DNA of 64,000 nucleotides from contig JAUCGA010000001.1 of NCBI GenBank assembly GCA_030377865.1, positions 1 to 64,000 of the forward strand, in the 5' to 3' direction. Origin of the DNA: Anaerolineales bacterium HSG25 (lineage in GTDB: Bacteria > Chloroflexota > Anaerolineae > 4572-78 > J111). Of the stretch, positions 375-64,000 are shown piece by piece (position 1 is the first letter of the stretch; each line of letters begins with the position of its first letter). The notes beneath the pieces are model-generated. The model worked only from the letters and a program-made list of their open reading frames with translations. It did not search any database and was not told the origin of the DNA. Position numbers and translations under genes: made by a program.

Positions 375-402
375 CAGCAAAAGCAAGATGCTTTTGCACT
401 CC
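375..402. repeat. Solo cargo hairpin of the C/A1 type
   Basis: The arms GCAAAAGCA and TGCTTTTGC flank a short centre, followed by ACTCC. This is one half of the hairpin that forms the core of the C elements (5380, 37680, 51018) and of element A1 (2730). Here it stands alone between the hypothetical gene and the DUF58 gene. Confidence 0.7.
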
Positions 403-2729: not shown

Positions 2730-2830
2730 GTAGTGGTTAAGATGGTGTTGAAAAAAGAATGCAATAGCTGAAAAGCTATTGCCAAGCAAAAGCAAGATGC
2801 TTTTGCACTCCAATGTCATCTTGACCACTA
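2730..2830. repeat. A-family palindromic element, copy A1
   Basis: The shell is GTAGTGGTTAAGATGGTGTT at the left, mirrored by ATCTTGACCACTA at the right. The cargo is a GCAATAGC/GCTATTGC hairpin joined to the GCAAAAGCA/TGCTTTTGC hairpin of the C family. No flanking duplication is evident. Confidence 0.75.
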
Positions 2831-2918
2831 TAGATAGGCGACTAATTTCGTCACAAAAAGAAGTAAAATATATAGCGGTTTTTCGTTAATTCAAGCAGTT
2901 TAAAAGGAGACAAGTATT

Positions 2919-3586: not shown

Positions 3587-3744
3587 GTAGTGGTCAAGAT
3601 GATGTTGAAAACCATGTCATACTGAGCCGAAGGCGAAGTATCCACCCGAATCTCCCTAGATTCGGGTAAGAGAGACCCTTCGCACTAGCTACGCGTCGCA
3701 GTTCAGGGTGACATGAACATTTTCAACATCAAGCTGACCATTAC
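3587..3744. repeat. A-family palindromic element, copy A2
   Basis: The shell GTAGTGGTCAAGATGATGTT is mirrored by AACATCAAGCTGACCATTAC, with the flanks ACATTT/AAATGT also inverted. The cargo has GTCATACTGAGCCGAAGG opposite CAGGGTGACATG, plus an inner CCGAATC/GATTCGG hairpin. It shares this cargo with A3 at 10326. Confidence 0.8.
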
Positions 3745-4236: not shown

Positions 4237-4366
4237 TAGGGCTGTTCAGTTCTCCATATTCGTCACGCTACAAGCGTGACCTACGGCCTCATGTCTGACA
4301 ATATCACTGTAGGTGACGCTTGTAGCGTCACAATTATGCCCATATAGACTAGAACTGAACAGCCCT
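4237..4366. repeat. F-family palindromic element, copy F1, with 8-bp target duplication
   Basis: The shell GGGCTGTTCAGTTCT is mirrored by AGAACTGAACAGCCC. The cargo is a TCACGCTACAAGCGTGACC hairpin, the same cargo as in B5. TCCTAAAC is repeated directly on both sides (4229-4236 and 4367-4374). The right copy overlaps the stop codon of thyX, so the element landed at the very end of that gene. Confidence 0.85.
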
Positions 4367-5272: not shown

Positions 5273-5552
5273 GGCTCTCTGGTAGATTCCGTGCAACTCA
5301 AAACTGCATCCTGAATTAGATACTTTAATGGGGCAATCTTCCCGCAAGTTTAAACCTTGCGGGAAGATGATGATACAATAGACCTGTTCGGCAATAATTA
5401 ATCATCTCATAAAAACTCAAAATCGAGGCATACGGAGTGCAAAAGCATCTTGCTTTTGCATGTTTACCTCTGGCAAAAGCAAGATGCTTTTGCACTCCTT
5501 TATTCCCGAACAACTCTAATCATGATGTTTGCACGGAAAGCCCCAAAGAGCC
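5273..5552. repeat. B-family palindromic element, copy B1, split by insertion of C1
   Basis: Minus-oriented B shell: GGCTCTCTGGTAGATTCCGTG to 5379, then resuming at 5521 with GTTTGCACGGAAAGCCCCAA and ending GAGCC. Removing 5380-5517 plus one AAT restores the contiguous B sequence seen at 14764, 21292 and 37423. Flanks TATTTTTA and TATTTTTG suggest a 7-bp target duplication. The cargo is the CCCGCAAGTTT/AACTTGCGGG hairpin. Confidence 0.88.
5380..5517. repeat. C-family palindromic element, copy C1, inserted inside B1
   Basis: The shell AGACCTGTTCGG is mirrored by CCGAACAACTCT, with CTCATAAAAACTCAAAATCG following the left end. The cargo is a long GGAGTGCAAAAGCATCTTGC hairpin. AAT is duplicated at 5377-5379 and 5518-5520. 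Confidence 0.88.
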
Positions 5553-6565: not shown

Positions 6566-6834
6566 CAGCGGTTAATTTTTAACCCAATTGATTAAATTGT
6601 CAAGTTTGTCAGATAGAGAATTCAAAGGTAGAGTCCTGCCTGAATCTTGCCAACGTCGCGCAATCGTAGAGCAACCATCGAACTGAATCTCAGTTTTTGA
6701 GTATAATATATGTAAATATTCAGTGAACTCGCCAGAAAGAGCATCAGAAACCCGATTTCTTTGAGAAATCGGGTTTCTAGAGCTACTTTACTGAACTTTT
6801 ACATGTGGTTTAAGACATGTGGCGGAGAATAGTT
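6566..6834. other. Intergenic region with element D1
   Basis: Divergent region between the channel gene and the peptidase-MA gene. Apart from D1 (6712-6802) and the ribosome binding site just before 6835, nothing recognisable is seen. Confidence 0.6.
6712..6802. repeat. D-family palindromic element, copy D1
   Basis: The shell GTAAATATTCAGTGAACTCG is mirrored by ACTTTACTGAACTTTTAC. The cargo is the perfect hairpin AGAAACCCGATTTCT/AGAAATCGGGTTTCT. No clear flanking duplication is seen. Confidence 0.85.
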
Positions 6835-8337: not shown

Positions 8338-8388
8338 AGAATAACGAGGTAAGAAGTAAAGGAGTAGGAAGCATGAAACGATCTATCC

Positions 8389-8411
8389 GCAAGTTTAAAA
8401 CTTGCGGGTAG
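8389..8411. repeat. Solo B-type cargo hairpin
   Basis: CCGCAAGTTTAAAACTTGCGGG is the core hairpin of B elements, found here without a shell, between the peptidase-MA gene and its neighbour. Confidence 0.7.
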
Positions 8412-10032: not shown

Positions 10033-10216
10033 AGAATCTTTAACGGAAATAAAAACATTAAGGAGTGAGCCATCGGTTATATCAAGACGTAATTTGAGAG
10101 AATTACCAATGGCAAGGTATAATTTAGGTATTAACCAGCAAATCGGGAAACTCGTTTTGAGCAATTGTTTTAAGACTGTAGTGATAACTACGCAGAACTC
10201 ATCCAATGACTATTAT

Positions 10217-10274
10217 AGAGCAGAATTTACAGGATAGGAGAATAAAAATTCTCTTATCCTGTAAATTCTGCTCT
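10217..10274. repeat. Strong hairpin inside a larger inverted repeat
   Basis: Arms AGAGCAGAATTTACAGGATA and ATCCTGTAAATTCTGCTCT enclose GAGAAT/ATTCTC. Outside it, AAGACTGTAGTG and GCAGAACTCATC at about 10167-10204 are mirrored by TGAGTTGTGCAGAGTCTT near 10300-10321, again a shell around a core. Confidence 0.7.
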
Positions 10275-10325
10275 AAACAGCGTAAATACTGTGGACTATT
10301 TGAGTTGTGCAGAGTCTTCAAGACT

Positions 10326-14563: not shown

Positions 14564-14763
14564 CTACCTATCCTTATCCTTAATATCGTAAACATTATAC
14601 CATATCTAATAAGGTTGACAATTAAGGAGTTTTCCGTGGTACACACCTGTACAACTAAAATTGCAGACCAATCAATCACTCTAACTGATAATCTGTTTTC
14701 TTTTGTCCTGTGGTTATGGTCATGCTATAATTGAATTGAATACACTAGTACCTAATAAATTTT

Positions 14764-14902
14764 GGCTCTTTGGGGCTTTTCGTGCAAACGTCATGATTGT
14801 GTCATCATCTTCCCGCAAGTTTAAAACTTGCGGGAAGATTGCCCCATTAAAGTATCTAATTCAGGATACAGTTTTGAGTTGCACGGAATCTACCAGAGAG
14901 CC
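14764..14902. repeat. B-family palindromic element, copy B2, with 9-bp target duplication
   Basis: The shell GGCTCTTTGGGGCTTTTCGTG is mirrored by TTGCACGGAATCTACCAGAG. The cargo is the CCCGCAAGTTT/AAACTTGCGGG hairpin. ATAAATTTT is duplicated at 14755-14763 and 14903-14911. Confidence 0.9.
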
Positions 14903-14920
14903 ATAAATTTTTAAAAAAGT

Positions 14921-15021
14921 GTGGTGGTCAAGATGATGTTGGAGTGCAATGGGTTCAGCCATTGCCTGTAGCAACGGCTAAACCCGTTGCACTCCGTTTT
15001 CAACATCAAGCTGACCACTAC
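14921..15021. repeat. A-family palindromic element, copy A4, with 15-bp direct repeat
   Basis: The shell is GTGGTGGTCAAGATGATGTT and its mirror. The cargo pairs GAGTGCAATGGGTTCAGCC with GGCTAAACCCGTTGCACTC. AAATTTTTAAAAAAG is present at 14905-14919 and 15023-15037. Confidence 0.85.
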
Positions 15022-15181
15022 AAAATTTTTAAAAAAGAGTTAAAAAACAGTTACTTACGCTGTTTCAGTACCTTGGGATTTCATCAGCATGATTTTGGTA
15101 TCAACAAACCAGCAATTTCATGTTGATTGATCTTGGGGTACTAATATCAAAACAGCGTAACGGCAGGTTTAAGGATTATCA

Positions 15182-16563: not shown

Positions 16564-16654
16564 GTAAATATTCAGTGAACTCGCCAGAAGGAGTGTCAGA
16601 AACCCGATTTCTTTAAGAAATCGGGTTTCTAGGGCTACTTTACTGAACTTTTAC
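16564..16654. repeat. D-family palindromic element, copy D2, with 8-bp target duplication
   Basis: Shell and AGAAACCCGATTTCT cargo as in D1. ATTTTCCG is duplicated at 16556-16563 and 16655-16662. Confidence 0.9.
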
Positions 16655-16688: not shown

Positions 16689-16855
16689 GGCTCTCTAGGA
16701 GTTTCCGTGCAAAATTCTATCCGTAGTAAAATTCTCGCAGAGGCGCGGAGACGCAGAGCCTTTATACTTTTCTCTGCGTCTCCGCACCTCTGCGAGAATA
16801 TTTTTTTCTACTTTAAAAATCAAGATTTGTTTTGCACGGAATATCCCATAGAACC
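16689..16855. repeat. B-family shell with a different cargo, copy B3, 8-bp target duplication
   Basis: The ends GGCTCTCTAGGAGTTTCCGTG and TTGCACGGAATATCCC match the B shell. The cargo is an unrelated long stem, ATTCTCGCAGAGGCGCGGAG opposite CTCCGCACCTCTGCGAGAAT. ATCTTGTT is duplicated at 16681-16688 and 16856-16863. Confidence 0.9.
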
Positions 16856-16860
16856 ATCTT

Positions 16861-16994
16861 GTTACCCGACAAGGATTTTTAGCCTCAACTAAACACAAAG
16901 AAGTATCTGACAGAATTAACAGAATTAACAAGACTAAAGGCAAAAAATCCTGTCAATCCCGAAAAAATCTTTATTTAATCAACATGTCGGGTAC
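16861..16994. repeat. E-prime palindromic element
   Basis: The left end GTTACCCGACAAGG and the right end CATGTCGGGTAC are inverted. The core uses CTGACAGAATTAACAG and CCTGTCAATCC, as in E elements. Related copies lie at 22212 (with a replaced core) and 63841. Confidence 0.65.
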
Positions 16995-17016
16995 TCATCA
17001 CTCATTGGAGGTTTAA

Positions 17017-27409: not shown

Positions 27410-27474
27410 GGAGTGCAAAAGCATCTTGCTTTTGCCAAAGACAACCATGCAAAAGCAAGATGCTTTTGCACTCC
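27410..27474. repeat. Solo C-type cargo hairpin
   Basis: GGAGTGCAAAAGCATCTTGC paired with GCAAGATGCTTTTGCACTCC, without the C shell, just after the CpaE-like gene stop. Confidence 0.8.
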
Positions 27475-27793: not shown

Positions 27794-27922
27794 GGCTCTT
27801 TAGGGTTTTCCGTGCAACTTAATTTGTAGGTCACGCTTGTAGCGTGACAATGCCCATAAACCACAAATTCGTGACGCTACAAGCGTCACCTACAATGGTT
27901 GCACGGAATCTACCAGAGAACC
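27794..27922. repeat. B-family shell carrying the F-family cargo, copy B5
   Basis: The ends GGCTCTTTAGGGTTTTCCGTG and TTGCACGGAATCTACCAGAG are B shell. The core is GTAGGTCACGCTTGTAGCGT opposite GACGCTACAAGCGTCACCTA, as in F1 and F2. Flanks GTTAATAT and GTTAATAA suggest an approximate 7-bp target duplication. Confidence 0.88.
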
Positions 27923-29529: not shown

Positions 29530-29720
29530 GTAAAAGTTCAATAAAGTATAGATGTTCAGATAAATATTTTCAGCCATCACCTTCCCGCAAGTTCTAAACT
29601 TGCGGGAAGGTTGGCCTTGAATTGAAAACCATTATCTGAAAGACTGTAGCTCTAGAAACCCGATTTCTTTGAGAAATCAGGTTTCTGATGCTCTTTCCGG
29701 CGAGTTCACTGAATATTTAC
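29530..29720. repeat. D-family palindromic element, copy D3, with nested insertion and 8-bp target duplication
   Basis: The ends GTAAAAGTTCAATAAAGTA and TTCACTGAATATTTAC. CGTTGCCG is duplicated at 29522-29529 and 29721-29728. The AGAAACCCGATTTCT hairpin is intact; 97 bp are inserted at 29549-29645. Confidence 0.9.
29549..29645. repeat. Nested element H carrying the B cargo, inside D3
   Basis: Imperfect inverted ends GATGTTCAGATAAATATTTTC and GAAAACCATTATCTGAAAG. The cargo is CTTCCCGCAAGTT/AACTTGCGGGAAGG, the hairpin of B elements. GTA precedes the insertion and is repeated right after it (29546-29548, 29646-29648). Confidence 0.82.
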
Positions 29721-31942: not shown

Positions 31943-32044
31943 AGTTTTCTCCGATATTAATGGTGCGTGTTATACTGAAAAAATAATACGTGTAACCATT
32001 CTAATATGAACCGTCCCCTGCGTCAAACGAACAGGAACAGGTAT

Positions 32045-32121
32045 TACGAATTACGAATTACGAATTACGAATTACGAATTACGAATTACGAATTACGAAT
32101 TACGAATTACGAATTACGAAT
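32045..32121. repeat. Eleven perfect tandem copies of a heptamer
   Basis: TACGAAT repeated 11 times without error (77 bp), ending at the stop-codon side of the COG3044-type gene. It encodes a spurious ITNYELR-type frame on the plus strand. Confidence 0.95.
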
Positions 32122-33844
32122 CATGTCTTACTCGCAACGTCCGCAGACGATTGAGAGCCGCGGCGAGTTCATAGGGTCGAAAAAGAACGTAACCACCCAT
32201 TTGTCGATTGTCCAGCACGTCCAATCCGGTTTTGTTGACCGCGGCCATCACTTCGCTAACAATCTCGGCTACGGTTTTATCTGTGTCCATGACCTGCTGA
32301 CGGGCGTAATTGAGCGCCTGTCCAATAGCCTGCACCTGTCCCTCGTCAACCAGTTGAGACACCAAACTGAGGTCAATTTCCTCTCGACCAAATAGTACAG
32401 ATCGCAAGGCTCGTCCTTTAATGTTGACCTCCCGTTTGCCCTTGCGTGGGTCAAGACTATCAGCAATCGGAATCCGAACAGAAGAAGGAGTCGGCCATTC
32501 GGGGCTGGCTTCAACTTGACGACCCGTTGGGTGTCGCTCGGCCACCAACTTGGCATGGGTGGTTACTTCGTAGGGCTGATATTTGTCTAGGCGAATAACG
32601 GTGTCGGCTACATCAAAATAATCACCACTGCCACCTAACACAAGAATAGTGCTGACATGGTAGGTGTCGGCCAACTGCCGTACCCGATCGACAAAGGGCG
32701 TGATCGGCTCACCTGACTTTTCGACGAGTGCCTGCATGCGAGCGTCGCGAATTAGCAGGTTCGTGGCACAGGTATCTTCGTCAAGCAAAAGCAGTTTGGC
32801 CCCTACCTCTAAAGCCTCGATAATATTGGCCGCTTGGCTAGTACTACCGCTGGCGTTGTCTGTCCGAAAAGTGCTGGCATCGGCTCGGTTGGGTAAATCG
32901 TTGATGAAAGGACGAATATCAACCCCTTCGATGCGCCGTCCGTCTTCGGCTCGAATTTTTACCGCGCTCGGCTCAGTAACAACCAACTCCCGCCCATCAT
33001 GAGGAATATGGTTGTACACACCTCGCTCTAGGGCCGATAAAAGGGTGCTTTTGCCATGATACCCACCACCTACAATCAACGTCACCCCCTTCGGAATCCC
33101 CATGCCAACTATCCGTCCGGCATTGGGGAGAGTCACCTCTACCTGTAATCGTTCGGGAGATCGAAACCGAACAATTTTTCGTCCGACAAGTGGACGATCA
33201 TCAACCCCAGAGGCTCGAGGCAAAATAGAGCCATCTACCACAAATGCAACCAACCCTAATTCGTCAAGCTGGGAGCGTAAGGCTTCAGCATCCTGCGCGG
33301 TGTTCAGATAACTGTTCAAATCTAAGAGGTTCAGGTTGTCATAGTGCAGGGTAGCGTGTACAATTTGAGGAATGTCTCGACAGAGAATGGCCGCGGCGCG
33401 ATGCCCCAAAATGCGCCGTCCTTTGGCGGGCAAACCAACTGTAAACCGAGCCTCTACATATCCAGCATTAATTATAATGGAAGAGCGTACTAAAATCTCT
33501 TGACCGGGCTGAGGCATACGGATGATACCACTTTTGCCAGAGCCAACATTGATCGTGCTATTGCTGATATAACGTACTTTGTCGGCAAAGGTTCGAGCCA
33601 AAAAATCGGCTAAAGCAGTTAAACGAGTCGGCGAATTTCGGGTACTGGTCGGAAATTTAGCGATCTGCATGGGCAAACGAACCCGAAACCGACTGGGAGC
33701 GGCATAAGGGTCGCCTTGGACATGGTCGATAAACAGGGTAAAATCTCCACATAAATAGCGCCCCCGAATATCTTTATAGGCTGGATATCCCTTGCCATCC
33801 AACCGATTAAGCAAAATCTGTAAATCGGTAATGGTTTGTGTCAT
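32114..33844 (-). CDS. COG3044-type ABC-class ATPase
   Basis: 576 residues. An N-terminal domain begins ITDLQILLNRLDGKGYPAYK with YLCGDFTLFIDHVQGDPYA, then the ATPase with Walker A LIVGGGYHGKSTLLSALERG (about 247) and Walker B LLLLDEDTCATN. The family is described as predicted ATPases of the ABC class, without transmembrane partner. GGAG lies upstream of the ATG. The last few codons overlap the heptamer repeat. Function is not established; it is probably not a transporter. Confidence 0.92.
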   Translation of the reverse strand: MTQTITDLQILLNRLDGKGYPAYKDIRGRYLCGDFTLFIDHVQGDPYAAPSRFRVRLPMQIAKFPTSTRNSPTRLTALADFLARTFADKVRYISNSTINVGSGKSGIIRMPQPGQEILVRSSIIINAGYVEARFTVGLPAKGRRILGHRAAAILCRDIPQIVHATLHYDNLNLLDLNSYLNTAQDAEALRSQLDELGLVAFVVDGSILPRASGVDDRPLVGRKIVRFRSPERLQVEVTLPNAGRIVGMGIPKGVTLIVGGGYHGKSTLLSALERGVYNHIPHDGRELVVTEPSAVKIRAEDGRRIEGVDIRPFINDLPNRADASTFRTDNASGSTSQAANIIEALEVGAKLLLLDEDTCATNLLIRDARMQALVEKSGEPITPFVDRVRQLADTYHVSTILVLGGSGDYFDVADTVIRLDKYQPYEVTTHAKLVAERHPTGRQVEASPEWPTPSSVRIPIADSLDPRKGKREVNIKGRALRSVLFGREEIDLSLVSQLVDEGQVQAIGQALNYARQQVMDTDKTVAEIVSEVMAAVNKTGLDVLDNRQMGGYVLFRPYELAAALNRLRTLRVRHDS

Positions 33845-34187
33845 GATATTTTCTCCAATAAACGTAACAGTTCATCATAAAAAATTGATTTTTAAGGTCA
33901 ATACGGCTACCTTATTTACTATATTTGTCTATGCCATTGTATCAGATTATGTAAAAAATGGCACTAGTACTAGACGGCGGAAATCGTACAATACAGACAA
34001 GATTCGTAAAAGTTCAGTAATGCCGCCCTAGAAACCCGATTTCTTTGAGAAATCGGGTTTCTGACGCTCTTTCTGGCGAATTCACTGAATATTTACCAAG
34101 ATTCACTCTCAGCTTTTACTAAAATTAGCATGGTATGCTAACCAGACAATCCAATATTACGTGTTATGTATTGTCGATTAACAATAT
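33845..34187. other. Divergent intergenic region with D4
   Basis: Separates the ATPase gene and the S41 protease gene. Apart from D4 (34006-34096) nothing is recognised. Confidence 0.6.
34006..34096. repeat. D-family palindromic element, copy D4, with 8-bp target duplication
   Basis: The shell GTAAAAGTTCAGTAATGCC is mirrored by TTCACTGAATATTTAC. CAAGATTC is duplicated at 33998-34005 and 34097-34104. Confidence 0.9.
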
Positions 34188-37422: not shown

Positions 37423-37561
37423 GGCTCTTTGGGGCTTTCCGTGCAAACGTCATGATTGTGTCATCATCTTCCCGCAAGTTTAAAACTTGCGGGAAGGTTG
37501 CCCTATCAAAGTATCTAATTCAGGATGCAGTTTTGAGTTGCACGGAATCTACCAGAGAACC
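37423..37561. repeat. B-family palindromic element, copy B6, with 8-bp target duplication
   Basis: Full B shell with CCCGCAAGTTT/AAACTTGCGGG cargo. CACAAAAC is duplicated at 37415-37422 and 37562-37569. Confidence 0.92.
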
Positions 37562-37679: not shown

Positions 37680-37818
37680 AGAGTTGTTCGGGAATAACTA
37701 ATCATCTCATAAAAACTCAAATTCGAGACGCGCCGGAGTGCAAAAGCTTCTTGCTTTTGCATGTTTGTCTCCGGCAAAAGCAAGAAGCTTTTGCACTCCT
37801 TTATTGCCGAACAGGTCT
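37680..37818. repeat. C-family palindromic element, copy C2
   Basis: The shell AGAGTTGTTCGG is mirrored by CCGAACAGGTCT. The cargo has GTGCAAAAGCTTCTTGC arms. The flanks ATT and CTT do not show a clean duplication. Confidence 0.82.
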
Positions 37819-42095: not shown

Positions 42096-42228
42096 TAGAG
42101 TTGTTCAGTTCTCCATGCTTGTCACGCTACAAGCATGACCTCCACGGCCTCATGTCTGACAAAATTACTGTAGGTGACGCTTGTAGCGTCACGATTATAC
42201 CCATATAGATTAGAACTGAACAGCCCTT
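42096..42228. repeat. F-family palindromic element, copy F2, with 8-bp target duplication
   Basis: The shell GAGTTGTTCAGTTCTCC is mirrored by AGAACTGAACAGCCC. The cargo is GTCACGCTACAAGC and its mirror. AGGGTAAA is duplicated at 42088-42095 and 42229-42236, the second copy just before the ATG of the gene at 42242. Confidence 0.9.
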
Positions 42229-44602: not shown

Positions 44603-44635
44603 GCTACCCGCAAGTTTAGAACTTACGGGTAGCTT
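44603..44635. repeat. Solo B-type cargo hairpin
   Basis: CTACCCGCAAGTT/AACTTACGGGTAG, a diverged form of the B core, between the ThiF and JAMM genes. Confidence 0.65.
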
Positions 44636-44663: not shown

Positions 44664-44752
44664 GTAAAAGTTCAGTAAAGTAGCCCTAGAAACCCGATTT
44701 CTTGAAGAAATCGGGTTTCTGACACTTTCTGGCGAGTTCACTGAATATTTAC
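44664..44752. repeat. D-family palindromic element, copy D5, with 8-bp target duplication
   Basis: The shell GTAAAAGTTCAGTAAAGTAG is mirrored by TTCACTGAATATTTAC. GGTTTCTA is duplicated at 44656-44663 and 44753-44760. Confidence 0.9.
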
Positions 44753-51017: not shown

Positions 51018-51155
51018 AGACCTGTTCGGGAATAACTAATCGTCTCATAAAAACTCAAATTCGAGACACACGGAGTGCAAAAGCTTCTTGCTTTTGCCAG
51101 AGGTAAACATGCAAAAGCAAGAAGCTTTTGCACTCCTTTATTGCCGAACAACTCT
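51018..51155. repeat. C-family palindromic element, copy C3, with 3-bp duplication
   Basis: The shell AGACCTGTTCGG is mirrored by CCGAACAACTCT. The cargo uses CTTCTTGC instead of ATCTTGC. AAT is duplicated at 51015-51017 and 51156-51158. It ends 12 bp before the next start codon. Confidence 0.9.
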
Positions 51156-63833: not shown

Positions 63834-63840
63834 TCGCCTC

Positions 63841-63966
63841 AGTACCTGACATGCTGATTAAATAAAAAATTTTTCGACAGGATTAACAGGATTTTTTACC
63901 TTTAATCTTGTTAATCCTGTCAGATATTTTTATATTTAGTTGAGGCTAAAAACCTTGTCGGGTAAC
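63841..63966. repeat. E-prime palindromic element
   Basis: The left end AGTACCTGACATGCTG is mirrored by CCTTGTCGGGTAAC. The core is GACAGGATTAACAGG/CTTGTTAATCCTGTC. Reverse orientation compared with the copy at 16861. It starts 8 bp after the transhydrogenase stop. Confidence 0.75.
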
Positions 63967-64000
63967 AAGGCTATTTTCAACCTTATTTGGTCCAAAAATC

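What the first reader, a model, noticed from the sequence alone, without database searches (positions are those of the whole stretch)
14755..15037. Shell-and-cargo palindromic elements: same cargo in different shells, different cargos in one shell
At least six families (A-F) have conserved ends around an internal hairpin. The hairpin CCCGCAAGTTT/AAACTTGCGGG is in shells B1, B2, B4 and B6, in shell H at 29549, and alone at 8389 and (diverged) 44603. The TCACGCTACAAGCGTGACC hairpin is in shell F (4237, 42096) and in shell B5 (27794). The GCAAAAGCA...TGCTTTTGC hairpin is in shell C, in A1, and alone at 375 and 27410. The B3 shell carries a third, unrelated stem. Ends and cores thus seem to assort independently, as if hairpins insert into the centre of other elements, or elements exchange cores. 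I know of MITEs, REP/BIME and IMU-type repeats, but not of a system with this modular exchange. Whether it has been described elsewhere is not something I can check.
Basis: seen in the sequence. Interest (0 to 1): 0.9.

Follow-up and report, generated by a model that had tools for sequence, protein, structure and literature searches.

The report
REP hairpins riding inside MITE shells
In this uncultured bacterium, probably a Chloroflexota, two kinds of small non-coding mobile DNA are combined like modules: the outer ends are MITEs moved by ordinary cut-and-paste transposases, the cores include hairpins that belong to a different enzyme (RAYT), and the same core recurs in several shells while most shells carry several cores.

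Summary
The 'shells' are MITE ends: terminal inverted repeats with target duplications (8 bp B, D, K, N; about 9 bp G, P; 3 bp C; TA for H). Shell B matches the ends of ISL3-family insertion sequences in sister genera. Three main 'cargos' are REP/REPIN palindromes: CCCGCAAG and GGAGTGCAAAAGC flank the genome's only two RAYT genes on both sides, and GTAGGTSACGCT flanks a RAYT in a sister species. In 854 kb of this genome and 345 kb of a same-genus genome I count about 20 shell-core pairs: R1 in B, H and K; R3 in B, F and H; GGAGT-type cores in C, G and K. Nearly every shell carries more than one core (D is the exception), and a few copies are empty. Most pairs are multi-copy with the core at a constant position, so mixing happens rarely, when a subfamily is born, and there is no fixed central slot. 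REPs inside palindromes were noted in passing in 2013 (PMC3733652) but not explained. How cores enter shells is not resolved. New variant of a known kind.

The parts
14764..14902 (+). Shell B MITE carrying core R1; target duplication ATAAATTTT at 14755-14763 and 14903-14911
14807..14839 (.). R1 core: 33-nt palindrome ATCTTCCCGCAAGTTTAAAACTTGCGGGAAGAT
   Evidence: pairing ends sharply at this boundary and co-varies across 50 distinct copies; same hairpin flanks RAYT gene L031
14917..15025 (+). Shell G MITE with R2c REP pair (14941-14995); 9-bp duplication TTTTTAAAA
21292..21430 (+). Shell B with R1
37423..37561 (+). Shell B with R1; duplication CACAAAAC
27794..27922 (+). Shell B with R3 REP pair (27826-27848 and 27871-27893); 7 of 8 duplication bases match
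16689..16855 (+). Shell B with R5 core (GCAGAGGCGCGGAGACGCAGAG); duplication ATCTTGTT
5273..5552 (-).
5380..5517 (+). Shell C with the R2 REPIN (5434-5498), inserted in the B element above; duplication AAT
37680..37818 (+). Shell C with R2 REPIN (37735-37799)
51018..51155 (+). Shell C with R2 REPIN (51072-51136); duplication AAT
27410..27474 (.). R2 REPIN with only remnants of C arms (truncated C)
377..402 (-). Single R2 REP
4239..4365 (+). Shell F with R3 REP pair (tails inside)
42098..42226 (+). Shell F with R3 REP pair; duplication AGGGTAAA when the ends are read as 42096-42228
29530..29720 (+). Shell D with R4 hairpin, interrupted by an H element; duplication CGTTGCCG
29549..29646 (+). Shell H with R1, nested in the D element (TA duplication)
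8386..8408 (.). R1 hairpin outside any recognised shell
44607..44629 (.). R1 hairpin, diverged, outside any recognised shell
2730..2831 (+). Shell G with a hybrid REP pair (one R2 arm, one other GGAGTGCAA-type arm)
3587..3744 (+). Shell G with R7-type core (TGTCATACTGAGCC...)
16858..16998 (-). Shell P1 with R6 core (AATCCTGTTAATC...)
63838..63969 (+). Shell P1 with R6 core
10182..10320 (+). Shell Q with a hairpin core; duplication AGACTGTAG; a core-less Q-like element is at G000:C31:13099-13168

Best explanation
These are composite miniature elements. The shell is a pair of MITE ends, mobilised as a unit by a DDE transposase of the matching insertion sequence (for B, an ISL3-family IS). The core is a short palindrome; three of the main ones are REP/REPIN units of RAYTs (HUH single-strand transposases), which also exist free of any shell and beside their RAYT genes. 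Now and then a REP or REPIN comes to lie between a pair of MITE ends; if that element is mobile, the shell transposase copies the pair around the genome as a new subfamily. Repetition with different RAYT repeats and different ends gives the shell-by-core grid. Shown: ends with target duplications, an IS with the same ends, cores beside RAYTs, free cores, the grid, empty shells. Inferred: that RAYT put the REP into the shell, and that the DDE enzyme spread the composite.
For: RAYT link: G000 has exactly two Y1 transposase genes, both above the NCBIfam REP_Tyr_transpos cut-off; the first matches TnpArep, PDB 4er8. The first carries 26 CCCGCAAG motifs in 2.66 kb around it; the second is bracketed by two identical 65-bp R2 REPINs. 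R3 brackets a RAYT in the same-genus genome (L103) and in an order-level relative (L121). Of 64 RAYT1-like loci, 56 share 13-mers, mostly palindromic, up- and downstream, against 1 of 60 in a control. MITE link: cargo-blind TSD+TIR survey, 74 against 6; an ISL3 element at L226:915-2334 has ends GGTTCTTTGGTAGTATCCGTGCGAC, 2 mismatches in 24 to the B consensus; a second genus holds IS ends with this TIR. Grid. Core-less shells: K at C74:29514-29568 with duplication AAAATCAT; P1 at L215:3280-3334 with a 7-bp duplication.
Against: No ISL3 transposase is in this genome bin (80% complete) and no transposase was identified for the other shells. R4 to R11 were not found beside any RAYT in the loci examined, so they may not be REPs. 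No pair of orthologous sites was found in which a shell gains a core; a search for one empty site gave no orthologue. Cores do not sit at one position within a shell.
Confidence: 0.75

Rival explanations
1. Passive capture: new MITEs form repeatedly when two transposase ends come to flank any short stretch. Because REPs are abundant in intergenic DNA, they are often what is caught. No RAYT activity on MITEs is needed.
For: In most shells only the TIR is common to versions with different cores; spacers differ. Some cores are not REP-like (F with a long core, P2 with multi-hairpin cores).
Against: Core boundaries equal the REP unit boundaries (33-nt R1; complete 65-bp R2 REPIN), which random capture would not favour. 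Perfect stems of 8 or more occur in 15 of 25 pairs against 6.3 expected from intergenic DNA (modest, since the background itself holds repeats).
Confidence: 0.4
2. Core exchange by recombination, gene conversion or template switching between palindromes, moving cores between shells without transposition.
For: P1 with R6 and P1 with CACAGAG cores share one arm of about 40 bp but not the other. Hybrid REP pairs (R2 with another GGAGTGCAA arm) lie in G at the same junction as R2c. R1 in B and H shares CATCA on the left and the CTTC/GAAG variant. Stem changes are symmetric.
Against: Most versions of a shell have unrelated spacers, so there is no homology to guide exchange; free and RAYT-linked cores show that cores have their own route.
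Confidence: 0.25
3. The hairpins are host-selected parts such as transcription terminators or mRNA-stabilising stems that many MITEs came to contain.
For: Strong stems kept by paired changes; intergenic location.
Against: No Rfam family matched in the window; R1 is not followed by a T run; cores cluster at RAYT genes.
Confidence: 0.07
4. Artefact: accidental nesting and misalignment.
For: A1 and H in D are plain nestings; 27410 is a truncated C.
Against: B with R1 has its core at one position in 25 copies; most pairs are multi-copy.
Confidence: 0.03

Closest known systems
REP/REPIN and RAYT systems (Bertels and Rainey 2011, PMC3116915; Nunvar 2010, PMC2817692)
   Same: Cores R1, R2 and R3 are short high-copy palindromes flanking RAYT genes; R2 and R3 occur as inverted pairs with a GGAG or GTAG tag.
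   Different: Here many copies sit inside DDE-type MITEs and appear to be spread by them.
REP dimers in palindromes of Anabaena variabilis, T. roseum and H. neapolitanus (Di Nocera 2013, PMC3733652, section 7)
   Same: REPs embedded in larger palindromic sequences; empty palindromes not found in two of the three species.
   Different: That note gives one shell per REP and no transposase or target duplication. Here shells are MITE ends with duplications, some empty, and they mix with several cores.
MITEs of ISL3 and other insertion sequences
   Same: TIRs, target duplications, no gene, under about 300 bp.
   Different: The recurrent cores belong to a second, unrelated mobile system.
Pneumococcal and S. 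suis BOX elements (PMC3049150)
   Same: Modular small repeats; in S. suis the same boxB modules lie between different ends.
   Different: BOX modules are tandem parts of one element type, not REPs with their own RAYT.
TIMEs and mosaic TIME elements (PMC4133298)
   Same: Non-autonomous ends carrying different cores.
   Different: TIME composites carry longer functional modules between TIMEs; here a short hairpin lies between two TIRs.
IS insertion into REPs (PMC1525189)
   Same: Two mobile systems interact; here an N element sits in an R3 hairpin loop (C109:73753).
   Different: That is element-into-REP; the main pattern here is REP inside element.

Membership tests
MITE (shells) | Terminal inverted repeats | tested here: met
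MITE (shells) | Target-site duplication above chance | tested here: met
   74 elements against 6 in control for exact 8 bp; G and P families with 9 bp; C (3 bp) and H (2 bp) are weaker because short duplications match by chance
MITE (shells) | No coding capacity, under about 300 bp | tested here: met
   Typical lengths 55-211 bp
ISL3-derived MITE (shell B) | Autonomous ISL3 IS with the same ends | tested here: met
   L226 in a same-family genome; IS ends in G004
ISL3-derived MITE (shell B) | Transposase present in this genome | tested here: inconclusive
   PF01610 gives 0 hits in the 80%-complete bin; absence may be an assembly gap, and MITEs can outlive their transposase
REP/REPIN (cores R1, R2, R3) | Short palindrome in many copies | tested here: met
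   R1 398 per genome; R2 111 and R3 21 hairpins in 854 kb
REP/REPIN (cores R1, R2, R3) | Flanks a RAYT gene | tested here: met
   R1 and R2 in this genome, R3 in a same-genus genome
REP/REPIN (cores R1, R2, R3) | Tag tetranucleotide (GTAG-like) beside the stem | tested here: met
   R3 GTAG or GGAG, R2 GGAG; in R1 CTAC/GTAG lies within the stem and is CTTC/GAAG in most B and H copies
REP/REPIN (cores R4-R11) | Flanks a RAYT gene | tested here: not met
   None near the RAYT loci examined; not filed as REPs
RAYT | HUH and tyrosine motifs, NCBIfam NF047646 | tested here: met
   82.4 and 107.8 bits, cut-off 80; NHYH and YVHLNP / YLLNNP read in the translations
RAYT | Cleaves its REP in vitro or in vivo | not testable with these tools
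   needs experiment

The most novel reading that the evidence does not exclude
MITE shells and RAYT repeats form a regular two-enzyme system: RAYT actively delivers REPINs into MITEs (for example into the single-stranded centre of their palindromes), the core then benefits from copying by the shell's DDE transposase, and this cross-mobilisation accounts for much of the spread of REPs in such genomes.
Probability: 0.2. Interest if true: 0.8.

Novelty: new variant of a known kind. Interest (0 to 1): 0.58.

Why it matters
How REPs spread is an open question: direct evidence of REP movement is scarce, yet REPs fill many genomes. If REPs hitch-hike in MITEs, a second and probably more active enzyme can multiply them. 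It also offers an explanation of the 2013 remark that some REP dimers sit in palindromes whose empty form is missing, and gives a countable grid of module combinations for testing how small elements are born.

Tried and rejected

Two pattern mistakes: the first R1 pattern was one base too long and gave 0; the B-end pattern was one base too long. Neither is evidence of absence; replace them.

Flank clustering of all cores merged into one cluster because cores flank each other; replaced by explicit TIR pairing and a cargo-blind survey. The first covariation script matched nothing (wrong length), redone.

Empty site of B2 in relatives: no orthologue found.

Rejected: the reading of A1 as a separate shell (C in B), of 27410 as a lone hairpin (truncated C), and of a fixed central insertion slot.

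Full report
WHAT WAS CLAIMED. Palindromic elements in the window have conserved ends (shells) and internal hairpins (cargos) that seem to assort independently.

WHERE IT IS. The window is contig 47, bases 1-64000, of a 4.99-Mb bin (143 contigs, 80% complete). The best database relatives of one of its transposases are mostly Anaerolineae/Chloroflexota metagenome bins, with other phyla among them; this suggests, but does not prove, that the host is a Chloroflexota bacterium.

OBSERVATION. R1 (CCCGCAAG...CTTGCGGG) occurs 398 times in the genome and never in the reversed-pattern control. B ends occur 98 + 96 times, control 0. I sampled 854 kb of the genome (12 contigs, chosen because they carry B copies) and 345 kb of a same-genus genome, G001.

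SHELLS ARE MITE ENDS. A survey that ignored the cores and asked only for an exact 8-bp direct repeat around matching inverted ends found 74 elements against 6 when the right end was reversed but not complemented; these fall into families D, B, N, F and K, and a 9-bp search gives G and P as well as other repeats (the 9-bp control itself gives 16 hits against 36, so there only the families with recognisable ends count). B is tied to the ISL3 family: a same-family genome carries an ISL3 transposase gene within a 1.42-kb element whose ends differ from the B consensus by 2 of 24 at one end and 7 of 24 at the other. In another genus (G004), two contigs end in sequence that has the B end and is 71% alike to the terminal 124 bp of that IS. 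The window's own genome has no ISL3 transposase in the bin.

THREE CARGOS ARE REPs. The genome has two Y1 transposase genes, and both are REP-associated tyrosine transposases by NCBIfam. The first lies amid 26 CCCGCAAG motifs in 2.66 kb; the second lies between two identical 65-bp units GGAGTGCAAAAGCATCTTGCTTTTGC-13 nt-GCAAAAGCAAGATGCTTTTGCACTCC, the same layout as the C core, differing in the 13-nt spacer and in some copies in the loop. The third cargo, GTAGGTSACGCT..., flanks a RAYT on both sides in G001 (L103) and in an order-level relative (L121). In 64 named-genome RAYT loci, 56 share 13-mers, mostly palindromic, on both sides, against 1 of 60 control windows. R1 is a sharply bounded 33-nt unit: in 50 distinct copies pairing is 90-100% up to position -6 and 4% one base further out, and two variable pairs change together (100% paired against 53% in shuffles; 90% against 41%). 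Other cores (R4-R11) were not found near any RAYT examined, and I do not call them REPs.

THE GRID. Counts in the two samples (unless noted):
B: R1 27, R5 3, R3 1. R1 and R5-like cores in B also occur in G001. In G004, B carries a TTGGATTGCCAAATCCAA-type core, and one copy carries a GTAG-tagged hairpin.
C: R2 29, R2d 6. D: R4 78 only. F: R3 6, other 2. G: R2c 21, hybrid R2 2, R7-type 1, other 1.
H: R1 21, R3 1 complete copy (several more R3 pairs beside H-like ends), a third hairpin 2.
K: R1 15, R2f 13, empty 1. N: R8 7, R9 2.
P1: CACAGAG-type 13, R6 10, two genuine empty copies. P2: R7 3, R10 3, other 3.
Q: one core-bearing copy in the window and one core-less copy.
Most pairs are multi-copy at unrelated sites with the core at a constant place, so each is mainly one event followed by amplification. 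Target-duplication counts allow a 3-bp shift of the ends and are generous; the strict figures are those.

WHAT IS SHARED BETWEEN VERSIONS. Usually only the TIR. P1 is an exception: the R6 and CACAGAG versions share one arm of about 40 bp. In G, the R2c and hybrid-R2 versions begin at the same junction, right after the TIR. So a fixed central slot is not the rule.

NESTING. C in B at 5380 (duplication AAT), H in D at 29549, G in P1 at C109:58686 and N in the loop of an R3 hairpin at C109:73753 (duplication TCACGTTA) are ordinary insertions. The intact host elements serve as empty sites and show where the inserts end.

MECHANISM. Shown: MITE ends, RAYT-linked cores, the grid, empties. Inferred: the shell transposase spreads the pair; RAYT, capture or recombination made it. 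I favour a mixture, with RAYT insertion likely for the REP cores because core and REP-unit boundaries coincide, but this is not proved.

PRIOR ART. Di Nocera and colleagues remarked that REP dimers of A. variabilis and H. neapolitanus and elements of T. roseum lie in palindromes, in two of the three without finding empty ones, and did not pursue it. IS insertion into REPs (PMC1525189, abstract only), modular BOX elements and mosaic TIMEs are related but different. In the papers searched I found none describing REPs assorting among MITE shells; many subscription journals are not in that library.

Noticed in passing
L031:795-2660 (G000:C25): RAYT1 and its REP array lie between genes that look like type I restriction hsdS and hsdR (by eye); the hsdR-like frame itself holds in-frame REP copies (peptide NNPQATYPQADNPQATYPQATYPQADSLRVGEQADSLRVGEQ) without a stop.
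   Followed up: partly
L032:1264-1430: Tandem array TGCACTCCGAAAACG (R2-related half sites) directly upstream of RAYT2.
   Followed up: no
G000:C109:73753-73853: An N MITE inserted in the loop of an R3 REP hairpin, duplication TCACGTTA: the reverse kind of nesting.
   Followed up: partly
window 32029-32126: Perfect 7-bp tandem repeat ATTACGA, about 10 or more copies.
   Followed up: no
G000:C55:45910-46462: Near-tandem run of several C elements with R2 REPINs, sharing boundaries.
   Followed up: no
L248, L249, L257 (G004): Contigs end exactly at or within the last base of B MITEs, so assembly breaks at these repeats and copy numbers in bins are underestimates.
   Followed up: partly
window 6712-6802, 16564-16654, 34006-34096, 44664-44752: Shell D (GTAAATATTCAG ends, 8-bp duplication) is the commonest MITE here, about 80 copies in 854 kb, and the only shell found with a single core.
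   Followed up: partly
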